DNA from: Fusibacillus kribbianus
Lineage (GTDB): Bacteria; Bacillota; Clostridia; Lachnospirales; Lachnospiraceae
Direction of reading: 5' to 3'
Length of the DNA stretch: 43,170 nt
Assembly (NCBI RefSeq): GCF_030053595.1
Contig: NZ_JASGBQ010000026.1
Span: forward strand, 1-43,170
Below, piece by piece: positions 4,316 to 32,259 of the stretch. The notes beneath the pieces were generated by a model that saw only the letters and a list, made by a program, of their open reading frames with translations, was not told the DNA's origin and ran no database searches. The translations under genes were made by a program, and so were the position numbers. How positions within the stretch are numbered: position 1 is the stretch's first letter; each line of letters starts with the position of its first letter.

Positions 4316-4693
4316 TTATTCTTCTACCCCGTAGACCAATTCATGGAGGATAATTTCCTCAGCCCGGTTATGGATCCTGTTCATCTTTTAAATCCATAAC
4401 CACTGGTCATTCTCTTTCAATTCTTCAGTCGCAAACTCGGCTTCCTGCATCTGCCTGATAATCCGCTGCAATCTGGTCTGTGCCTGTTCGTTCAGATCGG
4501 CAAGATAGGTCCAGAGCTGACCTTCCAGAAGCAGATCATTGAACATGATCGGATTATGCTCCTTGAGATACTCACGGTGCATCCGACCGTATTTTCCAAT
4601 AGATCGTTCTTCGTTCGGGAGCTTTAAATCCGGAATGTAGTAATCTCCTGCCAATACATAATTGATACTGTTGATATTCATTTTGTTTTCCAT
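4316..4693 (-). pseudogene. tnpV: tnpV-like transposon gene with in-frame stop
   Basis: The first 101 codons match TnpV of Tn4451-type transposons: LAGDYYIPDLKLPNEE, SIGKYGRMHREYLKEH, then a helix ending ELKENDQWLWI. A TAA at 4388-4390 ends the frame, but the same frame continues for 23 codons as KMNRIHNRAEEIILHELVY..., which is the expected TnpV tail, to a TAA at 4316. Read through, the protein would be about 125 residues, close to the family norm. No clear ribosome site was seen. TnpV is a small accessory protein of serine-recombinase transposons with no settled function; no recombinase gene remains here. Confidence 0.75.
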
Positions 4694-4737
4694 ATCTATA
4701 TAAAAGTAAACTTGCTTATCAAACCGTCCAGTAACAC

Positions 4738-6207
4738 CTATGAATCCAACACCATAAACTTATAAATATCACGCTTCAGTAATACAATTAAATGAGTCTT
4801 TGGAAATAAATATAAAATCTTCTTCATGCTTTCCACATACCAATCTGGAACATCACATTCCTTTAGAAGTTGTTCTGTTTCTGCTGGCATACGGCTACAA
4901 GTATATTTTCCTTTGCGCACAGCCTCTTTTATTTCAAACGCCACCCCTGAAGGATTTTCACAACACTTACCATTTAATTTATCATATAGATAGGCATATA
5001 CATCCTCTCGGCTGGATATCAATTCACCTAACGGAATTCCTTTATCATATAAAAGTTCTGCATTATCCTCCCATGCGCCAGTGCTATGTAGAAAACCATA
5101 TAATGTGAGCAACGTACTAAATTTAGGATTCTCATTATCTGAAAGTGCTTTGTCTAAATTTACCTCTCCGTAATTATCCTTAAATTTATCATTTTCTACA
5201 GCATAACTGAAAAACGCATTCACTTGCTGTGTTGATAATTCTAGATTCATCAAATCCCTGCTACTAATTTGTTCATTAACATCCTCTATCGTCATCAACA
5301 CTGGCCAGTCTGACAGTGACTTGTAATACTCATCTGCCTGTATGTTAATTAATCCTTCCGGATATTTTTTATCCATATCTTTTGGAAAAAGTACAAATCT
5401 TGTTATTTTTATTTGCTCCTCACTCTCAACATGCATATTTTCATTAAAAATAACGTTGAGTTCTCTAACTACACCATAACTTTCAAAGTACTCCTGTAAG
5501 CAATCTTTAACACACCCAGTTGCATCGCCCGAAATATAAATCTCATTATAATTTTTTATTGGATACATATTTATTTCACTAATTCCAAAACCATCCTTGC
5601 GATAGTTTCTTCCACAAGAACACTTCTTCTCTGGTAAATCCATCCCACATTTTTCATCTAGAACAAATTCTACTTTTTTACATGTCGGACAAAAATAATG
5701 TGATGGTAATGGATTAACATTTGTTCCACCCAAAAGCCATGCAATAAAAGAGGCTCCCATCTGTGCACCTCTTATTTCAAAATATAAATCCTTTGCACAA
5801 AATTCTTCTTGAAGTTTCCCCAAAAATCCCATCCACAGAAGTGTCTCTTGTCCATCAAGCATCAGTTCCTCTGTCTTAAAACGATTGACAATCCTTATAG
5901 GCGGATTATCTCCATACATTTCCTTCATTTTGTTTTTTGCTATATCAATTATTTCATTTTTCATTGTAAATAAGTCCTTTCTCTTCTTATCGAAAGCAGC
6001 ATATTCACAAGTTAACAGCTCGTCTACGCTTATATCAAGCACTTCTGATAATTTCCTAATAGTATCTATTCTGGGTTTAGATGCTCCATTCTCCCATTTA
6101 GATACCGCTTTATCCGACTTACCGACGAGTGCACCCAATTGGTATTGAGACAGGCCTCGTCTCTCCCTCAATGCACTGATAAAATTTCCAAAACTATAGT
6201 CTCTCAT
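4738..6207 (-). CDS. XRE-HTH protein fused to a catalytically degenerate PolC-like segment
   Basis: Start set at the second ATG (6207), six bases after GGAGG; an ATG at 6213 overlaps that site. Residues 8-65 are an XRE helix-turn-helix (LSQYQLGALVGKSDKAVSKWENG). From about residue 85 the protein follows the polymerase core of Gram-positive PolC: MYGDNPPIRIVNRF, then RGAQMGASFIAW...NVNPLPSHYFCPTC (146-176) with Cys 173/176/196/198 keeping a zinc-finger-like set, FSTLLTLYGFLHSTGAWEDNAE (363-384, written across the fingers region) and VPDWYVESMKKILYLFPKTH (453-472). The palm PDIDL region reads NEIYIS (221-226) and the later LKLDILG region appears as LMNLELS, so all three catalytic Asp look replaced. 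PHP, exonuclease and C-terminal parts are absent. A role in replication is therefore unlikely; a regulator or decoy is inferred. Confidence 0.75.
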   Translation of the reverse strand: MRDYSFGNFISALRERRGLSQYQLGALVGKSDKAVSKWENGASKPRIDTIRKLSEVLDISVDELLTCEYAAFDKKRKDLFTMKNEIIDIAKNKMKEMYGDNPPIRIVNRFKTEELMLDGQETLLWMGFLGKLQEEFCAKDLYFEIRGAQMGASFIAWLLGGTNVNPLPSHYFCPTCKKVEFVLDEKCGMDLPEKKCSCGRNYRKDGFGISEINMYPIKNYNEIYISGDATGCVKDCLQEYFESYGVVRELNVIFNENMHVESEEQIKITRFVLFPKDMDKKYPEGLINIQADEYYKSLSDWPVLMTIEDVNEQISSRDLMNLELSTQQVNAFFSYAVENDKFKDNYGEVNLDKALSDNENPKFSTLLTLYGFLHSTGAWEDNAELLYDKGIPLGELISSREDVYAYLYDKLNGKCCENPSGVAFEIKEAVRKGKYTCSRMPAETEQLLKECDVPDWYVESMKKILYLFPKTHLIVLLKRDIYKFMVLDS

Positions 6208-6358
6208 AATCATCCTCCGTTACTTGCTATCTTAATTTTACAACGGATTTTAGTTTTTTCAATTCATTCATATAGAACAAAAGTAGAGTTTACATTTTTG
6301 CATTTTCTTCAAAATATTATTTCTTTTATTATATCGTCACATCTGTTATTTTTTCATA

Positions 6359-6385
6359 GAAAAACGCCCCAGTATAACCGGAGCG
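6359..6385 (-). terminator. Probable terminator in the intergenic gap
   Basis: On the minus strand ACGCTCCGG, loop TTATA and CTGGGGCGT form a nine-pair stem with G-U pairs, followed by TTTTTC. It could back up the terminator at 6477-6510. Apart from these hairpins nothing is seen in 6214-6511. Confidence 0.55.
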
Positions 6386-6476
6386 TCTCTACCTCGTAGC
6401 AATGCTACACCACTTTAAACATTTTCTGTGATATTCTGCTTGCCATCTGAATCCTCCCCTCCTAATTCTTTGCATG

Positions 6477-6510
6477 ACAAAAGCACCTGCCAACTTAATT
6501 GACAGATGCT
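6477..6510 (-). terminator. Terminator of the small XRE gene
   Basis: AGCATCTGTCAA and TTGGCAGGTGCT pair around TTAAG on the minus strand, followed by TTTTG, directly after the stop codon. Confidence 0.7.
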
Positions 6511-6511
6511 C

Positions 6512-6763
6512 TCATGATGTTGCAGTATAAAAATGCAGATCATGAATATGGGTGACGATCGCATCGATCAGAACCTGGAACAGTTCACTGAGCGCATACA
6601 GATTATCAACAGTCGGCATGCTGATTCCATTTAACCAGTGATACACACTCTGCACACTGCCAAGTCCAAGGTATTCCTGCACTTCTTTTACGGTGATACC
6701 TCGCCTGTCCATGATTCTTCGAAGGTTGATCCCGGTTTCCCGTTTGTCGATCAATGGGAACAT
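6512..6763 (-). CDS. Small XRE-family HTH regulator
   Basis: 83 residues from the ATG at 6763, which has AAGGAG nine bases upstream; an in-frame ATG at 6796 has no comparable site. The HTH spans NLRRIMDRRGITVKEVQEYLGLGSVQSVYHWLNG, with ISMPTVDNLYALSELFQV completing the fold. No effector domain. It is a single-domain Cro/CI-type DNA-binding protein, the kind often left by mobile elements or acting on neighbouring genes. The target cannot be told. It marks the right edge of the mobile-relic region. Confidence 0.8.
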   Translation of the reverse strand: MFPLIDKRETGINLRRIMDRRGITVKEVQEYLGLGSVQSVYHWLNGISMPTVDNLYALSELFQVLIDAIVTHIHDLHFYTATS

Positions 6764-6828
6764 ATAATCACACTCCTTATTTTTCGGCTCTTCCATCGTC
6801 TATTCTATACTCATACTTCCACCGCCCT

Positions 6829-7101
6829 CTACCTGATCCGAAAGATCCCTTCCTTCTCAAGCGGCAGCGACTTCACCTTCATATCCCGGATCATCACATA
6901 AGTTCCCCGCTGGATCATAAGGATCATCTGGTCGATATCTGCTTCCGTTCCCTGCACCTCCATGGAAACGCTGCCATCCCATTCATTCCGGACCCAACCG
7001 GTGATGCCAAGGGAATTGGCCGCATGGAGGGCTCGATATCGAAACCCTACACCCTGTACATTGCCATAAAAAATGATCCGTTTTCTTACTCTGTCTGACA
7101 T
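6829..7101 (-). CDS. acyP: Acylphosphatase
   Basis: 90 residues from the ATG at 7101, preceded by AGGAGAG with a three-base gap (a longer frame to 7155 lacks a site). The signature YGNVQGVGFRYRA holds the phosphate-binding loop with the catalytic Arg, and GWVRNEWDGSVSMEVQG holds the catalytic Asn. Length matches the ~90-residue family. The enzyme hydrolyses acyl phosphates in the cytoplasm; its in vivo substrate is usually unclear. It follows the ArsC-like gene on the same strand with about 30 bp between, so the two may be cotranscribed. Confidence 0.93.
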   Translation of the reverse strand: MSDRVRKRIIFYGNVQGVGFRYRALHAANSLGITGWVRNEWDGSVSMEVQGTEADIDQMILMIQRGTYVMIRDMKVKSLPLEKEGIFRIR

Positions 7102-7132
7102 GATCTCTCCTGTTTTCTCCGCTGAAAATGTG

Positions 7133-7474
7133 TCAACTCCAGCTCTTCCACACATCCGGCTGATAACCGAGCGTAGACTGCTTCCCGTTTCGAACGACCG
7201 GCGTTCGGATCACCTGCGGGTTTTCAAGGATCTTTTGAAGCTTGTCCTCATCGACAATATATTTGATCAGGGCAAGTGTGTCCTGGTCCCGCCCCTCCCA
7301 GTTGATCATATTTTCGATACCGCCATTAGCCTGGGCAACAGAAGTGAATTCTCCCTTGCTCATGCCCTTCTCTTTCATATCAATAAACTGATATTTGATG
7401 CCGCGCTCCTTGAAAAAGCGCTCTGCCTTCTTCGTATCATTGCACTTCTTTGTCCCGAAGATCTGTATATTCAT
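7133..7474 (-). CDS. ArsC/Spx-family thioredoxin-fold protein
   Basis: 113 residues from the ATG at 7474, behind AAGGAGAG. The N-terminus NIQIFGTKKCNDTKKAERFFKERGI is the arsenate-reductase/Spx/MgsR fold with a single Cys where the CxxC of Spx would be (C followed by NDT). The Pro-containing RTPVVRNGKQSTLGYQPDVW tail is typical. The family includes reductases and RNA-polymerase-binding regulators. With only one Cys in the motif and no arsenic genes nearby I would not assign arsenate reduction. Part of a minus-strand run with the phosphoesterase and acylphosphatase. Confidence 0.85.
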   Translation of the reverse strand: MNIQIFGTKKCNDTKKAERFFKERGIKYQFIDMKEKGMSKGEFTSVAQANGGIENMINWEGRDQDTLALIKYIVDEDKLQKILENPQVIRTPVVRNGKQSTLGYQPDVWKSWS

Positions 7475-7484
7475 TGGCCTCTCC

Positions 7485-8177
7485 TTATTCAACGGTGTTT
7501 CTAGCCAAATCATCGGCCCAATTATTGGGGCGCTGATCCAATACGTATGGAGTCATCTGAGAACCCATTGCCACTCTTCGTTCCCGATCCTTCACGATCC
7601 ACTCATCCAGCGTGAGCGGCACATAATCAGAAAACATGCAGAAGCAGTTGATCATGTTGCAGGGGATTCGCTGAGCTCCGTGTTCGGAACGGCGAATCCG
7701 GCTTCTTGTATCCTGTATATAATCATTGACCAGAACCTCGTCGTAGGTATTGTGCACGTGCCCATAAAGCATATATGCTCTCGGATTTCCGTCCTGATCC
7801 ACCCGGTTCTGTCCATTGTAGCAGAACACAGGATAATGAGACAGGATGATCTTGCGCTTATTATCGTTCAATTCCTTATAATGCTCGATCCAGCCAAACA
7901 GACTGCGGTCAAAGCTTTTGTCGCTCAGGAATCTGTCATGATTCCCAACGATCAGATATTTCCGGCCGTTGAGCTGTTTCAGGATCTCTTCCGTTTCCTG
8001 GGCTTTTCCGATGGAAAAATCGCCAAGGACGACCACCTCATCCTGTTTCCTGACCCGCGAATTCCATTGGCTGATCATGTACTGATGCATGTCTTCCACA
8101 GATGAAAACCCGCGGTGATCCATGGAAGTATTCAAATTTCCATGATAGAAATGAAGGTCTGAAATGTAGTATCGCAT
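7485..8177 (-). CDS. Calcineurin-like metallophosphoesterase
   Basis: 230 residues starting at MRYYISDLHFYHGN (ATG 8177, four codons inside the longest frame). Metal-binding blocks in order: SDLHFYH, VLGDFSIG, VGNHDRF, LSHYPVF and LYGHVHNTY. This is the full set for a dinuclear phosphoesterase. The gene ends 10 bp before the ArsC-like start, so the three genes probably form one transcript. The family includes nucleotide and RNA phosphatases; the substrate cannot be read from the sequence. Confidence 0.88.
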   Translation of the reverse strand: MRYYISDLHFYHGNLNTSMDHRGFSSVEDMHQYMISQWNSRVRKQDEVVVLGDFSIGKAQETEEILKQLNGRKYLIVGNHDRFLSDKSFDRSLFGWIEHYKELNDNKRKIILSHYPVFCYNGQNRVDQDGNPRAYMLYGHVHNTYDEVLVNDYIQDTRSRIRRSEHGAQRIPCNMINCFCMFSDYVPLTLDEWIVKDRERRVAMGSQMTPYVLDQRPNNWADDLARNTVE

Positions 8178-8296
8178 AGTTAAGCACACCTTCCCTTCCC
8201 CTGTAATGCTTCATAAAGCTCTGCCGCTTCCAATAATATTAAACGAATTCCGATCCCCGGCACGTTGCTTCTGCTCATACAAACACACTCAAAACC

Positions 8297-8623
8297 TCAT
8301 GCCGTCAGGTCATAGCTTTCACCGATCATCCGTTTTATATCCTCCTCCGGAATCGTTCCGTTCAATATAATAGAATTCCAGTGAGTCTTATTCATATGAT
8401 AGGCCGGTATCACTGCTGAAAATGTATTTCTCCAGAAATCCCGCCACTCCGGATCTACTTTCACATTGATCCAGGTGCACCCGTTCCTTTCATATATAAA
8501 CGCAAATGTCTTCTTGTTCTTCGTATGACGCATTACCGTCCAATTGTCATCATGAAAAGGGTAATCCTCATAAACTCCCGCAAAAGAACGACAAAATGCA
8601 ATCGCTTCCTGTCTTGTTTTCAT
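8297..8623 (-). CDS. MmcQ/YjbR family protein
   Basis: 108 residues with the family pattern: MKTRQEAIAFCRSFAGVYEDYPFHDDNWTVMRH, a central KKTFAFIYERNGCTWINVKVDP strand pair and a C-terminal YHMNKTHWNSIILNGTIPEEDIKRMIGESYDL. The fold is CyaY-like/double-wing and is often described as DNA-binding, but function is not established. It starts 5 bp after the stop of the upstream 70-residue gene, suggesting cotranscription. Confidence 0.88.
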   Translation of the reverse strand: MKTRQEAIAFCRSFAGVYEDYPFHDDNWTVMRHTKNKKTFAFIYERNGCTWINVKVDPEWRDFWRNTFSAVIPAYHMNKTHWNSIILNGTIPEEDIKRMIGESYDLTA

Positions 8624-8627
8624 CTGC

Positions 8628-8840
8628 TTACCCCTTCACCAGCTTTCCCTGCTCATCAAAGCTCACCTGATCACCCACATTGATCTGCCGGTCGTAGAGC
8701 ATCCGGTCCGGCTGACGGACAACAGTCTGCTCGCCGGAGGGCTCCTGCAGAATGACTACCGCCATCACCGGCGTCCCAGCCGCGCGCTCTTCGCAGCCAA
8801 AATCCAGATCCTCATCAATTCGAACCACCGAATACGTCAT
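8628..8840 (-). CDS. Conserved-looking small protein of unknown function
   Basis: 70 residues from MTYSVVRIDEDLDFGCEERA (ATG 8840, with GGCGGTG upstream; a longer start at 8864 is possible). It has a compact beta-rich composition (PVMAVVILQEPSGEQTVVRQPDRMLYDRQINVGDQVSFDEQG) with no membrane segment or known motif. The final part resembles an OB/SH3-like turn pattern, but this is weak. It is immediately followed by the YjbR gene. I do not recognise a named family. Confidence 0.65.
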   Translation of the reverse strand: MTYSVVRIDEDLDFGCEERAAGTPVMAVVILQEPSGEQTVVRQPDRMLYDRQINVGDQVSFDEQGKLVKG

Positions 8841-8886
8841 ACTGTTCACCGCCCATTCTATCAAAAATTATACTACATTTATTCTG

Positions 8887-8934
8887 TTAAACCAGGATGC
8901 CTGTGCAGTGGTCGCATTCGTGCTGAAGCATCCT
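8887..8934 (-). pseudogene. Peptide deformylase C-terminal scrap
   Basis: The minus strand encodes RMLQHECDHCTGILV then a stop, matching the HExxH metal motif and end of peptide deformylase. No upstream deformylase sequence remains: the same frame meets TGA and TAG within 15 bases. It is a gene tail stranded between two live genes. Confidence 0.55.
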
Positions 8935-8952
8935 TCATAATCGGCCCTACCA

Positions 8953-9432
8953 TTACTCTGCCTCCTCCGGAATCCGGCAGACATCGATCCAGTCCTTGCT
9001 GCCGGACAACTGCTCCAGCTCCTCCGGGGTCAGTTCCACCGCACTGCTGGCACTGCCGCAGGCCGGATAGACCTTCTCGAACCGTTTCAGCGACTCATCC
9101 AGATACACGTCCACACCGGCTTTGATCCCGAAGGGGCATACGCCTCCCACATCGTGTCCGATCAGAGTATGAACCTCTTCCGCCGTCAGCATCTTGGCCT
9201 TCTTATGGAAAAATCCTTTAAATTTACCGTTGTTGATCTTGGCATCGCCGGCGCACAGGATCATCACCGGCTGCTCCTCCACCATGAAGGTCAGGGATTT
9301 TGCAATGCGGGCCGGTTCTGTTCCCACCGCGATTGCCGCCAGCTCTACAGTGGCACTGGACACATCAAACGTCTGTACCCGATCTCCATATCCTTTCCTT
9401 TGTAAATAAGCAAATGCCTCTTCATATGCCAT
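8953..9432 (-). CDS. YbaK/EbsC-family aminoacyl-tRNA deacylase-like protein
   Basis: 159 residues, the normal size for a free-standing YbaK/ProX editing domain. Visible blocks: GTEPARIAKSLTFMVEEQPVMILCAGDAKINNGKFKGFF, with the conserved Lys in the AKSLTF strand, HDVGGVCPFGIKAGVDVYLDESLKRFEKVYPACGS and the closing ELTPEELEQLSG. Family members hydrolyse mischarged tRNAs such as Cys-tRNA(Pro); the exact specificity of this branch is not known. A consensus-like promoter lies 25-53 bp upstream. Start is the ATG at 9432. Confidence 0.9.
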   Translation of the reverse strand: MAYEEAFAYLQRKGYGDRVQTFDVSSATVELAAIAVGTEPARIAKSLTFMVEEQPVMILCAGDAKINNGKFKGFFHKKAKMLTAEEVHTLIGHDVGGVCPFGIKAGVDVYLDESLKRFEKVYPACGSASSAVELTPEELEQLSGSKDWIDVCRIPEEAE

Positions 9433-28747: not shown

Positions 28748-28877
28748 GACTCTCTTTCCGGCCTTCCGTGAGCATTAAAAAAAGTCCGTATTCCCTGTAT
28801 TTTACGGGGTTTCTTCGGACTTCTCTCTTTTCCTGAGCCACTGGGGATTCGAACCCCAGACAACTTGATTAAAAGTC
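28748..28877. repeat. Left attachment repeat (attL): tRNA-Lys 3' part plus terminator
   Basis: 130 bp nearly identical (three differences) to 32102-32230. It contains the tRNA-Lys terminator stem (AAGTCCG...CGGACTT) and the 3' tRNA part from the discriminator to the anticodon loop, ending ATTAAAAGTC, then diverges. This is the original host tRNA end displaced by integration. Confidence 0.93.
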
Positions 28878-28923
28878 GGGTTTTTCTTGTTGTATTTTGA
28901 AGCGTAAAGCGAAGTCTGAATGA

Positions 28924-29093
28924 ATGGCTTCGCCCTCGCCCGGCGCGGTTTGGGCGCCAGAGGGCACTGGAAGCCATGAATGAATGGCTGTAGCGGTTTC
29001 CGGAGCAAGGCCCAGCCGCAAGGCGGCGCCACGTCTCGGCCGGTTCGCCCGAGGTCCCTGCCACGGATGGTTTTCCGTGGTAGGTAGGGCGAA
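28924..29093. other. Folded noncoding block, candidate replication origin
   Basis: Two long hairpins in 170 bp: ATGGCTTC/GAAGCCAT (28924-28931, 28970-28977) enclosing GCCCTC/GAGGGC; and TTCGCCC/GGGCGAA (29044-29050, 29087-29093) enclosing CCTGCCACGGA/TCCGTGGTAGG. TGAATGAATGGCT is also repeated directly (28917 region and 28977 region). G+C content is far above the element's genes. Such structure suits a double- or single-strand origin, or a packaging signal. Confidence 0.55.
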
Positions 29094-29118
29094 TGCGAAG
29101 GAAACAAGCGAAAAAATT

Positions 29119-29149
29119 AACCCTGCCTTATTCGGTAGGGTCTTTTTTT
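29119..29149 (+). terminator. Rightward terminator at the element's left side
   Basis: ACCCTGCC/GGTAGGGT stem with loop TTATTC, then TCTTTTTTTA on the plus strand. In a circular form it would stop transcripts coming through the integrase and origin. Confidence 0.75.
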
Positions 29150-29508
29150 ATTTCTGTGTATTCATTTATCATTTTATCTATTATTTCTGATGTCTGCATT
29201 GATGCTTCTTTTAATATTTCATTTTTACTTTTTCCTGAAATTACTGATATCATTTCGAACATTTCATTGAGTTTTTCATTCATTACTCTTTCTGTTTCTT
29301 CGATTTGTTCTTTTGAAATGCGTTCCATGATATCGCCAGGTTGGCAATCTAAATAATCACATATTTTATTTATTACATCAGTTGTTACATTTTCATTTTT
29401 GCCTAACTTTGTAAGTGTCCCTCTTGCTATGATACCATCGTCAACTAAATCAATCCTTTTTTTCCCTTTTTTACTCATTAGTATCCATAATTTTGCATAT
29501 GATAACAT
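29128..29508 (-). CDS. CI-like XRE repressor of the element
   Basis: 126 residues from ATG 29508, behind AAGGAA. MLSYAKLWILMSKKGKKRIDLVDDGIIARGTLTKLGKNENVTTDVINKICDYLDCQPGDIMERI is a Cro/CI HTH of the type common in Bacillota phages. The rest is helical (EQIEETERVMNEKLNEMFEMISVISG), probably for dimer formation. It is divergent from the replication/integration genes and faces a promoter overlapped by three direct repeats, so it likely keeps them off. Confidence 0.85.
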   Translation of the reverse strand: MLSYAKLWILMSKKGKKRIDLVDDGIIARGTLTKLGKNENVTTDVINKICDYLDCQPGDIMERISKEQIEETERVMNEKLNEMFEMISVISGKSKNEILKEASMQTSEIIDKMINEYTEIKKDPTE

Positions 29509-29523
29509 TTTATTCCTTCTTTC

Positions 29524-29583
29524 TTGACATGGTACTATTAACATGGTATTATACCTTTAAGTATCACGTACATAGTATTATTA
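29524..29583 (+). promoter_or_regulatory. Consensus promoter with three operator repeats
   Basis: TTGACA (29524-29529), 17 bp, TATTAT (29547-29552). ACATGGTACTATTA (29527), ACATGGTATTATA (29541) and ACATAGTATTATTA (29570) are direct repeats covering the -35, the -10 and the start region: the expected binding sites of the divergent repressor. Confidence 0.8.
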
Positions 29584-29673
29584 CACGTTATTGTTAATGA
29601 GTTTGATTATGGTTTTGATATATTTTATCAGTTTCCTATTTATTTTGCAAGAGAATTGATTGGAGGTGATTAT

Positions 29674-29937
29674 TTGAACTATCCGCCTGATTATGGTTCA
29701 TGTATTTTAGTTTCTTATTTTAAGGAATTGACTGATGAACAGTTAGCGTTTGAGTATTACCATTTGCAATGTTGTTATAAGGCTTGGGATGATTTTCCAT
29801 CTGATATTCATACACCATTTTTAATTGAGTATCTTGATTGTCTCGAGGATTTTATTGCTCAGGAAATTTGTAATCGGTTTGTTAATTGTTGCTTTGGTAT
29901 GGATTGTGTAAATTATCCTATTGGTCTTGATGATTAG
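29674..29937 (+). CDS. Small Cys/Tyr-rich element protein, unknown function
   Basis: 87 residues from the TTG at 29674, seven bases after GGAGG (an upstream TTG at 29656 overlaps that site). NYPPDYGSCILVSYFKELTDEQLAFEYYHLQCCYKAWDDFPSDIHTPFLIEYLDCLEDFIAQEICNRFVNCCFGMDC: acidic, aromatic, with seven Cys. No membrane segment and no known motif. As the first gene after the operator-controlled promoter it may be an early regulator or excision factor, but nothing shows that directly. Confidence 0.65.
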   Translation: MNYPPDYGSCILVSYFKELTDEQLAFEYYHLQCCYKAWDDFPSDIHTPFLIEYLDCLEDFIAQEICNRFVNCCFGMDCVNYPIGLDD

Positions 29938-29945
29938 AGTGGTGG

Positions 29946-29974
29946 CCTGCCAGCGCACGTTCACACGCGGCAGG
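29946..29974. repeat. Stem-loop between the two small element genes
   Basis: CCTGCC(A)GCG (29946-29955) pairs with CGCGGCAGG (29966-29974), ten-base loop CACGTTCACA, one bulged A. G+C-rich in an A+T-rich surrounding. Could be a Rep nick/binding site or an RNA control element. Confidence 0.5.
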
Positions 29975-29996
29975 ACTCCACGATGGAGGATGTATT

Positions 29997-30236
29997 ATGG
30001 TTCGCTGTAGTCGTTATTTAAGTAAGGAAAATTTTAATGATGATGAGTTTATTATTGAATTTAACATGGGTGAATTGGAACTATTTGCTTTGAGTATTGA
30101 ACATTGTTTGAATAGTCCTGATTTTGCTTCATTGGTTGATAACGTTGATATCGCCATATTGAAGGAATTACATGATGTTGTAGTGACATTTTTAGATTAT
30201 AAGTCTCATTCGACATTTTCACCTGATGATAAATAA
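29997..30236 (+). CDS. Small acidic element protein, unknown function
   Basis: 79 residues: MVRCSRYLSKENFNDDEFIIEFNMGELELFALSIEHCLNSPDFASLVDNVDIAILKELHDVVVTFLDY. ATG 29997 preceded by GGAGGATGTATT. Acidic and helical after a short N-terminal strand; codon use is strongly T-ending like its neighbours. It sits directly before rep with 21 bp between, so the two are cotranscribed. No family recognised; a replication accessory or anti-host factor are both possible. Confidence 0.65.
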   Translation: MVRCSRYLSKENFNDDEFIIEFNMGELELFALSIEHCLNSPDFASLVDNVDIAILKELHDVVVTFLDYKSHSTFSPDDK

Positions 30237-30257
30237 TTACAATATGGAGGTTTCGTC

Positions 30258-31166
30258 ATGCCTTATAATGTAGCACTTATATCACTTGCAGATGGTTCAC
30301 AGGAAATTGTTACCTATAGCAGGCCTATAGATACTCGTTTATCTTCTGAAAATCCTAGATCTAGTGGTGTTCGTAAGCTTTCTGATGATGAATGTTCTAC
30401 ACCCTTTGGAGATGCTGATTATGAGATATGTGATGATTCTACCTTCTTTTCTGATTGTGTTTCTCCTGAGAATTTGGCGCTCCGTAAGTGTCATTCTGAG
30501 ATTAATTCTATTAAGCGTGCTAGGAAGTCTGTTGAATATATTGGTAAGTGTAACGATTGGTCGAATGGCTATTTCGTAACACTTACTTTTAATCCTGATG
30601 TGTTGAACAGTTATGATTATTTTGTCTGTATGGATGCTGTTATAAAGTGGCTTGATTGTATGAGACATAGGTATCCTGGTATGGAATATCTTCTTGTTTT
30701 CGAAAAGCATAAGTCCGGCCGTTATCATGTACATGCTCTTATTCGTGGATGTGAATTACGTCTTGTTCCTGCTGTTAATGCTAAAACTGGTAAGCTTATC
30801 TATAAGAAGGGTAAGCAGATTTATAATCTTTCATTTGATGAATATAAGCTGGGGCTTACTACTGTTTCGTATATTGAGAATAGTCGGGCTGTAGCACAAT
30901 ATATTTCTAAGTATATAGGTAAGGCGCTTGGTGAGGTTCCTGCTGGTTGTCACCGCTATTTTGCTTCACGTTCTCTTAATAGGCTTGAGGATTGTCGGGA
31001 GACTTTCTTCATTGATGATGTGTATGACTTAAGGAATGTCATTGACTGGCTTCATGGTATTGCGGATTCTGTTCATCAAGTTTTTGTGGATGTAATTGAA
31101 ACTACAGTGACGTATTTTAAAGTTTTTTCGGCTGGGCCACTGTCTGGTGCCGTTGCCCCTACTTGA
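30258..31166 (+). CDS. HUH-type rolling-circle replication initiator (Rep)
   Basis: 302 residues, ATG 30258 with GGAGG at seven bases. Motif 1 YFVTLTF (105-111), the HUH motif RYHVHALIRG (H157, H159) and the Tyr motif AQYISKYIGKAL (Y215, Y219) occur in the standard order. The VFEKHKSGRYHVHA context resembles the Rep proteins of ssDNA phages (Microviridae/inovirus-type, REP_ORF2-G2P group). It would nick one strand at the origin and stay bound through Tyr. It overlaps the recombinase frame by four bases, but the recombinase start proposed is 60 bp later. Confidence 0.88.
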   Translation: MPYNVALISLADGSQEIVTYSRPIDTRLSSENPRSSGVRKLSDDECSTPFGDADYEICDDSTFFSDCVSPENLALRKCHSEINSIKRARKSVEYIGKCNDWSNGYFVTLTFNPDVLNSYDYFVCMDAVIKWLDCMRHRYPGMEYLLVFEKHKSGRYHVHALIRGCELRLVPAVNAKTGKLIYKKGKQIYNLSFDEYKLGLTTVSYIENSRAVAQYISKYIGKALGEVPAGCHRYFASRSLNRLEDCRETFFIDDVYDLRNVIDWLHGIADSVHQVFVDVIETTVTYFKVFSAGPLSGAVAPT

Positions 31167-31228
31167 CTAGGGCAACGTTTTACAGAAATTCCGGTTTAAT
31201 TATTTCAGTTTTTTCGAGGTTTTTGTGT

Positions 31229-32125
31229 ATGACTGTTTTTGAAGCATATGATTGTTATGTTTTTAGTAAGCGAAAAAAGGGATTGAAAATAACTTCTCTC
31301 GATGATGTTGATTATTGCCTTCGAGGGTTTATTCGTGCTGTCGGTGCGGATTTAGATATCCAGAAATTATCACAACGGATGGTAGACGATTATATTATGT
31401 CTCTTTATTCGAAATCTTTGGCAAAAGCTACGATTGCTACGTATATTCGTTATCTTCGCTTATTTCTTATGTTTGTTAATTCTCATTATGGTCTTTCCTT
31501 TTCCCCTGAAACTATCGAGATTCCGAAATCTCCGAAAAAGAAAGTGCGGCTTTATTCCGCTTCTGATGTAGTTTTGATTTTTAAGAGTATTACTTCATCT
31601 GTTTCATGGATAACGGCTCGGAATCGTGCAATTATCGCTCTTATGCTTGATTCCGGATTGCGTCAATGTGAGATTGTTTCATTACATTATTCTGATATTT
31701 CATTTTCTGCGTCTCAGCTTCGTGTTCATGGAAAAGGTGATAAAGAGCGCTATTGTCTGCTTGGGAATATTTCTGCTCGATATCTCAGGGAATATTTTGT
31801 GCTTTGTCCATATTCAAATAATGATTATGTTTTTTGTTCTGATGATGGTAGTCAAATCACTGGCAATGCTATACGGATATTTGTTTCTCGTTTGGCTTCA
31901 TCTCTTCCCTTTGAATTATCTTCTCACAAGCTTCGTCATAACTTTGCTACTAATTATGTGATTCAAAAGTCTGAGTCTGGGCTTCAGGTTGATGCTTATA
32001 CTCTTAAACTTTTAATGGGGCATGAAAGTATTGTTACCACTGAGGGATATATTCATTGTGCTATGGAAGCTTTGGCTGTAAAATCAAGTATTTCTTATCT
32101 CGACTCCCTTTCCGGCCTTCCGTGA
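31229..32125 (+). CDS. Tyrosine recombinase (integrase) of the element
   Basis: 298 residues from ATG 31229, behind CGAGG; an upstream frame extension lacks a site. Core-binding SAM-like domain to about 100, then the catalytic domain with R145 (DSGLRQCEI), K169 (HGKGDKER), H233xxR236 (SHKLRHNFAT), H265 (LLMGHESI) and Tyr274 (TEGYIH): a complete XerC/D-like set. The final codons (DSLSGLP, stop) lie inside the right attachment repeat, in sequence shared with the host tRNA downstream region. It catalyses integration at tRNA-Lys. Confidence 0.95.
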   Translation: MTVFEAYDCYVFSKRKKGLKITSLDDVDYCLRGFIRAVGADLDIQKLSQRMVDDYIMSLYSKSLAKATIATYIRYLRLFLMFVNSHYGLSFSPETIEIPKSPKKKVRLYSASDVVLIFKSITSSVSWITARNRAIIALMLDSGLRQCEIVSLHYSDISFSASQLRVHGKGDKERYCLLGNISARYLREYFVLCPYSNNDYVFCSDDGSQITGNAIRIFVSRLASSLPFELSSHKLRHNFATNYVIQKSESGLQVDAYTLKLLMGHESIVTTEGYIHCAMEALAVKSSISYLDSLSGLP

Positions 32126-32230
32126 GCATTAAAAAAAGTCCGTATTCCCTGTATTTACGGGGTTTCTTCGGACTTCTCTTTTTTCCTGAGCCACTGGGGA
32201 TTCGAACCCCAGACAACTTGATTAAAAGTC
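32102..32230. repeat. Right attachment repeat (attR)
   Basis: 129 bp matching 28748-28877 with two substitutions and one missing T. It supplies the 3' half of the functional tRNA-Lys gene, its terminator and the integrase 3' end. The crossover is likely at the anticodon stem-loop, where the copies diverge (AAAAGTC then AAG here, GGG on the left). Confidence 0.93.
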
Positions 32231-32259
32231 AAGTGCTCTACCGACTGAGCTAGTGGCCC
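32187..32259 (-). tRNA. tRNA-Lys (TTT)
   Basis: 73-nt cloverleaf; acceptor GGGCCAC/GTGGCTC, anticodon loop CTTTTAA, T-arm GGGGTTCGAATCCCC. CCA not encoded. It is the integration target; its 3' half comes from the element copy of the repeat. Last gene of the five-tRNA unit. Confidence 0.97.

What the first reader, a model, noticed from the sequence alone, without database searches (positions are those of the whole stretch)
28878..32230. Minimal 3.35-kb integrative element with HUH Rep and tyrosine recombinase, ssDNA-phage-like
The element has only five genes: CI-like repressor, two unknown small proteins, a rolling-circle Rep with HUH and YxxxY motifs, and a complete tyrosine recombinase. It carries its own tRNA attachment site. 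There is no capsid, Zot, relaxase or cargo gene. This is smaller than known inovirus or microvirus prophages and looks like a satellite that borrows a helper's coat, or a self-replicating integrative plasmid. The two small proteins may hold the key to packaging or helper interference.
Basis: partly seen in the sequence, partly recalled or inferred. Interest (0 to 1): 0.85.

Follow-up and report, generated by a model that had tools for sequence, protein, structure and literature searches.

The report
Tiny integrating rolling-circle element family
A 3.35-kb genetic hitchhiker with only a copying gene, an integration gene, a switch and two small proteins sits in a lysine tRNA gene of a gut bacterium; it belongs to a widespread family that shares parts with filamentous phages and may travel in their coats.

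Summary
A 3,353-bp element (28878-32230) lies in tRNA-Lys between direct repeats of about 130 bp. It encodes an HTH_26 repressor, two small orphan proteins, an intact HUH Rep (PF23343, filamentous-phage G2P type) and an intact tyrosine recombinase, with no recognisable coat, Zot or cargo. It is not a lone relic: a sister species has the same layout in the same tRNA (its two small ORFs are not recognisably homologous), with Rep, Int and repressor under purifying selection. One scan gave 49 further loci of this integrase clade, mostly Lachnospiraceae. Of 27 bounded loci, 24 are in tRNA-Lys and 24 carry a Rep without Zot (median 3.46 kb). Three unrelated HUH Rep types are swapped beside this one integrase clade. 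Filamentous phages share modules: two loci are Zot-bearing, and the Rep_trans origin hairpin recurs in a Zot locus of the window's own genome. I commit to an integrating rolling-circle replicon, most likely a filamentous-phage satellite like TLC-phi; packaging is inferred. Against: helper co-occurrence is not significant (1 of 10, and 0 of 9 without the window genome), the family's hairpin also occurs on ICE-like elements, and mobilisable elements are close rivals. New variant of a known kind.

The parts
28748..28877 (.). left direct repeat (attL): displaced tRNA-Lys 3' end (28834-28877) plus a 24-bp relic of an int 3' tail at its left edge
28878..32230 (+). the integrated element, 3353 bp
   Evidence: repeat spacing 3353; same layout in G300
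28890..29118 (.). GC-rich structured non-coding island 1; candidate lagging-strand origin or packaging signal (inference)
   Evidence: lacks the family hairpin motif
29120..29141 (+). terminator-like hairpin, conserved in G300 and L040
29128..29544 (-). HTH_26 Cro/CI-type repressor, 138 aa as listed (the G300 homologue starts about 12 codons further in)
   Evidence: PF13443; 65% identical in G300, dN/dS about 0.10
29524..29552 (+). predicted promoter of the S1-S2-Rep-Int operon (TTGACA-17-TATTAT, extended -10)
   Evidence: consensus match only
29656..29937 (+). S1, 93-aa acidic protein, predicted three helices (mean pLDDT 73.9); weak similarity to small ORFs of other elements
29939..29981 (.). 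hairpin upstream of S2/Rep, candidate plus-strand (Rep) origin (inference)
   Evidence: z -2.45
29997..30236 (+). S2, 79-aa protein, no detectable relatives
30258..31166 (+). Rep, 302-aa HUH endonuclease of REP_ORF2-G2P type with YxxxY
31163..32125 (+). Int, 320-aa tyrosine recombinase, overlaps the rep stop; its 3' end lies in the right repeat
32102..32230 (.). right direct repeat (attR), restores the tRNA
32187..32259 (-). tRNA-Lys(ttt), attachment site

Best explanation
It is an intact integrating rolling-circle replicon. Int inserts it at the 3' end of tRNA-Lys, rebuilding the tRNA. In the lysogen the repressor silences the divergent promoter. On induction Int excises a circle, and Rep nicks a plus-strand origin and drives rolling-circle replication through a single-stranded circle that is made double-stranded from a structured lagging-strand origin. 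Between cells it most likely travels as a filamentous-phage satellite, like TLC-phi: its ssDNA is extruded by the assembly ATPase and coat of a Zot-bearing helper such as the one in the same genome. Shown: anatomy, intact catalytic residues, conservation, modules shared between this family and filamentous phages. Inferred: excision, replication and the origins. Hypothesis: packaging.
For: Same layout and site in a sister species; dN/dS Rep 0.27, Int 0.13, repressor 0.10, neighbouring host gene 0.13, dS saturated. Rep hits in 'phages' are 27 bajarodino/Dulem virus records (best E 3e-27 of the 20 listed); 'plasmids' give 34 records, best E 2e-9. The 4 of 27 phage records opened are classed as Inoviridae and carry Zot; 63 of 67 IMG/VR Rep loci carry Zot by my profile. 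Of 14 IMG/VR loci with Zot, Rep and Int, 13 have the order Zot-Rep-Int. L074 (6.2 kb, Zot+G2P+Int, tRNA-Lys, coat-like ORF, phrog_1646 E 0.0098) and L059 (Zot+Int) carry the same Int clade. The window's genome holds a Zot locus (phrog_197 E 2e-9) with Rep_trans and small membrane ORFs. Its origin hairpin recurs in 10 of 12 Rep_trans minimal loci (pattern drawn after seeing two of them), and its Rep groups with 11 minimal Reps, away from three ICE MobT proteins, at 97/98. It is the only PF02486 gene found in that genome. Coding-strand composition of element and phage nearly match (A.24 C.165 G.21 T.39; A.23 C.16 G.22 T.39). Past mobility: four genomes of the genus have tRNA-Lys without element or int remnant, G303 has an int-tail footprint, and window and G300 carry int-tail relics of 24 and 54 bp in the left flank.
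Against: No circular form, particle or packaging signal was seen. In 299 Lachnospiraceae genomes 10 carry the Int clade and 10 carry Zot; only the window genome has both (Fisher p 0.29), and both query alignments contain its own sequence; without it 0 of 9 carriers have Zot. The window element and its putative helper share no DNA beyond chance words and have different Rep types. The family's putative lagging-strand hairpin is also on ICE-like elements, so it is not phage-specific, and the window lacks it. Two other inovirus Rep_trans proteins group on the ICE side, and L061's hairpin is closer to the ICE form. T-richness is not universal in the family (L056 T 0.22, L093 T 0.21). The two small ORFs of window and G300 are not detectably homologous. 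The IMG/VR link is partly circular: inoviruses there were recognised by their pI/Zot-like gene (PMC6813254, passages).
Confidence: 0.42

Rival explanations
1. A minimal integrative and mobilisable element: the HUH Rep doubles as a relaxase, and the ssDNA is moved to other cells by the coupling protein and pore of a resident conjugative element.
For: In streptococci 118 of 144 IMEs carry relaxases of RCR-initiator families (MobT/PF02486, PHA00330, PF02407, PF01719), 35 of them without a coupling protein, and tRNA genes are among the sites (passages of PMC5704250 and PMC5357655). This family uses PF02486 and PF02407 Reps too. The putative lagging-strand origin of many relatives is also on ICE-like elements.
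Against: Published IMEs there are 5-18 kb, one 53 kb; 24 of 26 bounded non-Zot loci here are 2.6-4.9 kb. 22 of those 26 have no other ORF of 180 aa or more beside the annotated ones, so no room for a TcpA-type coupling protein; a TcpA profile was not run. The origin hairpin of 9 of 12 Rep_trans members is of the filamentous-phage form, not the ICE form. No PF02486 relaxase other than the phage's was found in the window genome; other kinds of conjugative element were not searched for.
Confidence: 0.23
2. A self-replicating integrative rolling-circle plasmid without a dedicated helper, spreading rarely by uptake or by passive carriage.
For: Integrated plasmids with CRESS-type Reps and no known viral structural proteins are described (passages of PMC6668415). 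Needs nothing beyond what is seen; co-occurrence with Zot is not significant.
Against: Modules are shared with filamentous phages at the level of Rep, Int, site and origin, and repeated turnover at one tRNA suggests efficient transfer.
Confidence: 0.27
3. A decayed filamentous prophage that lost its coat and assembly genes and is now inert.
For: Zot-bearing forms with the same Int clade exist (L074, L059). Decay occurs in the genus: G306 keeps a disrupted Int next to the repressor without Rep.
Against: Purifying selection and the same layout in two species; 24 of 27 bounded loci have a Rep without Zot; intact catalytic residues.
Confidence: 0.08

Closest known systems
TLC-phi satellite of Vibrio cholerae filamentous phages (PMC4246890, passages)
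   Same: Temperate element with an autonomous replication module, lacking structural and morphogenesis genes, integrated at a fixed chromosomal site; [quoted passage not shown]
   Different: TLC-phi uses host XerCD at dif; this element has its own integrase and targets tRNA-Lys. Packaging is not shown here. Host is a Lachnospiraceae member.
Streptococcal IMEs with RCR-initiator relaxases (PMC5357655, PMC5704250, passages)
   Same: Tyrosine integrase, tRNA genes among the sites, Rep-like HUH protein of several interchangeable families.
   Different: Those are 5-18 kb and 83 of 118 carry TcpA; these are smaller, without room for a coupling protein in most, and share phage-type modules.
Integrated pCRESS plasmids (PMC6668415, passages)
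   Same: Site-specifically integrated elements with viral-like Reps and no structural genes.
   Different: Only the PF02407/PF00910-type members of this family resemble them; the window Rep is G2P-type without a helicase match.
Inoviruses from animal faeces (bajarodino and Dulem viruses) and the Zot locus at G000:C7
   Same: Bajarodino/Dulem: same Rep family, and a repressor or DNA-binding gene on the opposite strand in 3 of the 4 opened. The G000 locus has a different Rep type (Rep_trans) but one shared with other members of this family.
   Different: They carry Zot and further genes; this element has no Zot. The four opened have no annotated integrase. Their bacterial hosts are not given.

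Membership tests
Filamentous phage (inovirus) | Zot/pI-type assembly ATPase and coat proteins on the element | tested here: not met
   five genes, none matching; S1 and S2 are orphans, so an unknown coat cannot be wholly excluded
Filamentous phage (inovirus) | G2P-type HUH replication protein | tested here: met
Filamentous-phage satellite (TLC-phi type) | own replication module, no recognisable morphogenesis genes, integrated | tested here: met
Filamentous-phage satellite (TLC-phi type) | candidate helper in the host | tested here: met
   Zot locus at G000:C7; incomplete at a contig end
Filamentous-phage satellite (TLC-phi type) | helper association across hosts | tested here: inconclusive
   1 of 10 Int carriers has Zot (0 of 9 without the window genome), 9 of 289 others; p 0.29
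Filamentous-phage satellite (TLC-phi type) | packaged by helper virions | not testable with these tools
   needs virion DNA
IME with RCR-initiator relaxase | integrase plus HUH initiator of the published families | tested here: inconclusive
   relatives have PF02486 and PF02407; the window has PF23343, which may correspond to the published PHA00330 group (recalled, not tested)
IME with RCR-initiator relaxase | TcpA coupling protein (in 83 of 118 published; 35 lack it, so not strictly defining) | tested here: not met
   none of the five window genes matches one; no TcpA profile was run on relatives
IME with RCR-initiator relaxase | mobilised by a conjugative element | not testable with these tools
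   -
Integrated CRESS-type plasmid | Rep with HUH nuclease plus helicase domain | tested here: not met
   window Rep has no helicase match

The most novel reading that the evidence does not exclude
A large, unrecognised class of filamentous-phage satellites in Gram-positive gut bacteria: one tRNA-Lys integrase clade joined to freely swapped HUH replicons (G2P, Rep_trans, CRESS-like), travelling in helper filaments. It is missed by surveys that search for the assembly ATPase, which satellites lack.
Probability: 0.36. Interest if true: 0.82.

Novelty: new variant of a known kind. Interest (0 to 1): 0.6.

Why it matters
Few filamentous-phage satellites are known (TLC and RS1 of Vibrio cholerae come to mind; recalled). 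If this family is one, such satellites were about as frequent as Zot loci in the 299 Lachnospiraceae genomes sampled (10 Int carriers, not all complete elements, against 10 Zot genomes), and a survey keyed on the pI ATPase misses them by design. Either way it ties three HUH Rep families to one integrase clade and mostly one site, and makes the open question 'plasmid, IME or satellite?' testable in cultured strains such as Blautia sp. Marseille-P3087.

Tried and rejected
Microvirus kinship: rejected, the phage hits opened are inoviruses. Defence cargo: no convincing PADLOC match (best E 0.018 for the repressor). Known RNA in the element: only the tRNA reaches its gathering score; in nine relative loci only tRNA and rRNA do. 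Shared DNA between the window element and the co-resident phage: none beyond chance words. A common packaging signal: the family hairpin, first suspected, is also on ICE-like elements and fits a lagging-strand origin better. Pfam Zot alone under-calls: the G000 Zot was found but not, so an alignment-based search was used, with E up to 1e-13 taken as Zot; I set that line after seeing the list (10 genomes, next best 7e-7; 257 of 299 match at E 0.001, which I take to be mostly other ATPases). Solved relatives of Rep by sequence: none; by fold only weak HUH matches, best E 6e-3, wheat dwarf virus and AAV Rep. IMG/VR scan with the window Rep alone: nothing. The L050 hairpin against plasmids and phages: no match. 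Literature for 'inovirus satellite' and variants: one irrelevant hit. An exact int-tail string test was false for all eight other flanks; an alignment replaced it.

Rows dropped: the 40-element hairpin count is 40 of 56 loci; I left out 4 Zot-bearing loci and 12 without a clear element. Three short Int rows (L084, L086, L087) are not in the tree. L078 and L080 are odd members (extra genes; truncated Rep) but stay in the size range. Several loci are cut by contig ends, so 'no Rep' there is not evidence of absence.
Full report
OBSERVATION. The element spans 28878-32230 and is bounded by near-perfect direct repeats spaced 3353 bp. The right repeat contains the 3' part of an intact tRNA-Lys. Genes: HTH_26 repressor on the minus strand, then S1, S2, Rep and Int on the plus strand, Rep and Int overlapping. 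Inside, 250-bp windows are mostly 28-40% GC against mostly 46-60% outside, and the plus strand is T-rich, also under the opposite-strand repressor. A good consensus promoter match lies in the divergent control region (the scan as a whole is near chance). Two non-coding structured places stand out: 28890-29118 and 29939-29981.

REP AND INT. Rep matches PF23343 and phrog_3419, rolling-circle initiation. In 16 aligned relatives HxH and YxxxY are invariant. A model (mean pLDDT 71.7) finds HUH nucleases at the top of a fold search, weakly (best E 6e-3). Among 50,697 phage records 27 match, all named bajarodino or Dulem viruses; the four opened are Inoviridae with Zot. The 34 plasmid records are more distant (best E 2e-9). 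Int has the invariant catalytic set (assignment recalled) and Xer-like solved relatives.

A CONSERVED FAMILY, NOT A LONE RELIC. Rep occurs in 2 of 11 genomes of the genus. The second, G300, has repressor, two small ORFs, Rep and Int in the same order in the same tRNA with a 163-bp repeat. Its two small ORFs are not detectably homologous to S1 and S2 by phmmer (S1 to the 78-aa ORF E 3; S2 nothing), so the layout is conserved but not those sequences. Between the two, dN/dS is 0.27 (Rep), 0.13 (Int) and 0.10 (repressor), against 0.13 for the neighbouring host gene; dS is saturated. A scan of genome contigs with five Int sequences gave 222 relatives, of which 80 were kept. I treat the first 49 plus the window as the Int clade; the 47 of these 50 long enough for the tree form one starred clade (99/93). 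Of the 50, 33 have a Rep and no Zot, 2 have Zot, and 15 have neither, several being cut by contig ends. 27 are bounded by a copy of the tRNA 3' end: 24 in tRNA-Lys, and one each in Arg, Pro and Phe. 24 of the 27 have a Rep and no Zot, at 2.3-6.2 kb, median 3.46 kb.

SWAPPED REPLICONS. The Reps beside this Int clade in the 33 non-Zot loci are of three unrelated types: PF23343 (16 loci), PF02486 Rep_trans (12) and PF02407/PF00910 Viral_Rep (5), by profiles built here. Pfam confirmed the five seeds tested: three for Rep_trans and two for Viral_Rep, one of the latter by its helicase domain only.

LINKS TO FILAMENTOUS PHAGES. L074 is a 6.2-kb Zot-bearing form with the same Int clade, a PF23343 Rep and the tRNA-Lys site; L059 is another Zot-bearing form with this Int next to tRNA-Lys, without a detected Rep or repeat. 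Outside the clade 19 of the 25 tree rows are Zot-bearing, but most of these come from IMG/VR, which is biased to them. An origin-like hairpin lies upstream of Rep in 10 of 12 Rep_trans minimal loci (further upstream in L048; closer to the ICE form in L061) and in 3 of 3 Zot-bearing contigs with Rep_trans, one of them in the window's own genome; ICE loci carry a different variant. I drew the pattern after seeing two of these, so it is post hoc. The Rep of the window genome's phage groups with 11 minimal Reps, 97/98, apart from three ICE MobT proteins; two other inovirus Reps fall on the ICE side. That phage locus, G000:C7 from about 58.4 kb to the contig end, has a Zot-like ATPase (PF05707 E 1.5e-6; phrog_197 E 1.7e-9), Rep_trans and small hydrophobic ORFs. 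It holds the only PF02486 gene found in the genome; other conjugation genes were not searched. Base composition of the two coding strands is nearly equal, but T-richness is not general in the family.

CIS ELEMENTS. GC-rich islands recur at the left end and just upstream of Rep in many members. The inverted repeat TGTCAAGG...CCTTGACA is the commonest in 40 of 56 loci examined as minimal elements: 9 of 40, or 12 of 40 with a near variant; 0 of 41 chromosomal flanks; 4-6 of 70 Zot-bearing contigs; shuffle mean 0.05-0.09, maximum 1 in 200. Some AT-rich 7-mers reach 9 in shuffles, but no 7-mer with three or more G+C exceeds 3. In four loci (L047, L050, L080, L082) the full pattern holds: TTGAC in the stem, then TATAAT and a second hairpin. 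This fits a single-strand origin read by RNA polymerase, as described for rolling-circle plasmids and discussed for ICEBs1 (PMC4595007, passages). A core of it, with up to 2 mismatches, is in 9 of 299 Lachnospiraceae genomes at 13 sites, with the reversed control at 0; none of the nine is among the 10 Int carriers. Three of seven such regions fetched hold a MobT-like gene, one beside a Tn916-like integrase by my reading. So it marks an ssDNA phase, not a phage. The window's own island lacks the motif.

TURNOVER AT THE SITE. In the genus, G304, G301, G307 and G299 have tRNA-Lys with no element and no int remnant in 300 bp; G305 has none either but its contig ends at the site, and G095 offers only 82 bp. 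G303 keeps 47-49 bp of an int 3' tail next to an intact tRNA without an element (98% to the G306 int), and G306 keeps a disrupted int plus repressor without Rep. The left flanks in the window and G300 also contain int-tail sequence, 24 and 54 bp, which explains the unusually long repeats: an earlier occupant seems to have been lost (inference).

HELPER TEST. In one sample of 299 genomes, 10 carry the Int clade (E up to 1e-50; not all are full elements) and 10 carry Zot. One carries both, the window genome (Fisher p 0.29), whose own Int and Zot are in the query alignments; without it the overlap is 0 of 9. This gives no support for a helper relation and, with so few, does not exclude one.

MECHANISM AND STANDING. 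Excision, rolling-circle replication and re-integration follow from the gene families. Transfer is open: satellite 0.42, integrative plasmid 0.27, IME 0.23, inert relic 0.08. Published neighbours are TLC-phi (PMC4246890), streptococcal IMEs with Rep-like relaxases (PMC5357655, PMC5704250) and integrated pCRESS plasmids (PMC6668415), all read as passages. Roux et al. 2019 found inoviruses by the pI protein (PMC6813254, passages), so elements without it were outside that survey. I found no paper naming inovirus satellites of this kind in the listings of ten library searches; the library is open-access only.

Noticed in passing
L037 (G000:C7:54000-63383), 4365-9384: A Zot-bearing filamentous prophage-like locus at a contig end in the window's own genome: Rep_trans, a small regulator-like ORF, small membrane ORFs; the rest of it and its attachment site were not found.
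   Followed up: partly
L047, L050, L067, L073, L080, L082 island 1; also L236, L240-L252: A strongly conserved structured DNA element (hairpin with a TTGAC half-site, in some a TATAAT, then a second hairpin) shared by minimal elements and ICE-like elements; no Rfam family matched it in the nine loci scanned. Probably a lagging-strand origin.
   Followed up: partly
window 28748-28877; L036 5069-5231; L227 (G303): Int 3'-tail relics beside tRNA-Lys point to serial occupation of the same site.
   Followed up: yes
L224 (G306:C68): A remnant with a disrupted Int directly beside the repressor, Rep and small ORFs gone; a second Int fragment lies at G306:C14.
   Followed up: partly
L055, L047, L065 (minus-strand ORFs left of Rep): Instead of HTH_26, many relatives carry a short RHH/TraY-like regulator or a different HTH gene; the control module is swapped too.
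   Followed up: no
L121: A Zot-bearing viral contig with near-identical Int genes at both ends, suggesting a terminally redundant or tandem genome.
   Followed up: no
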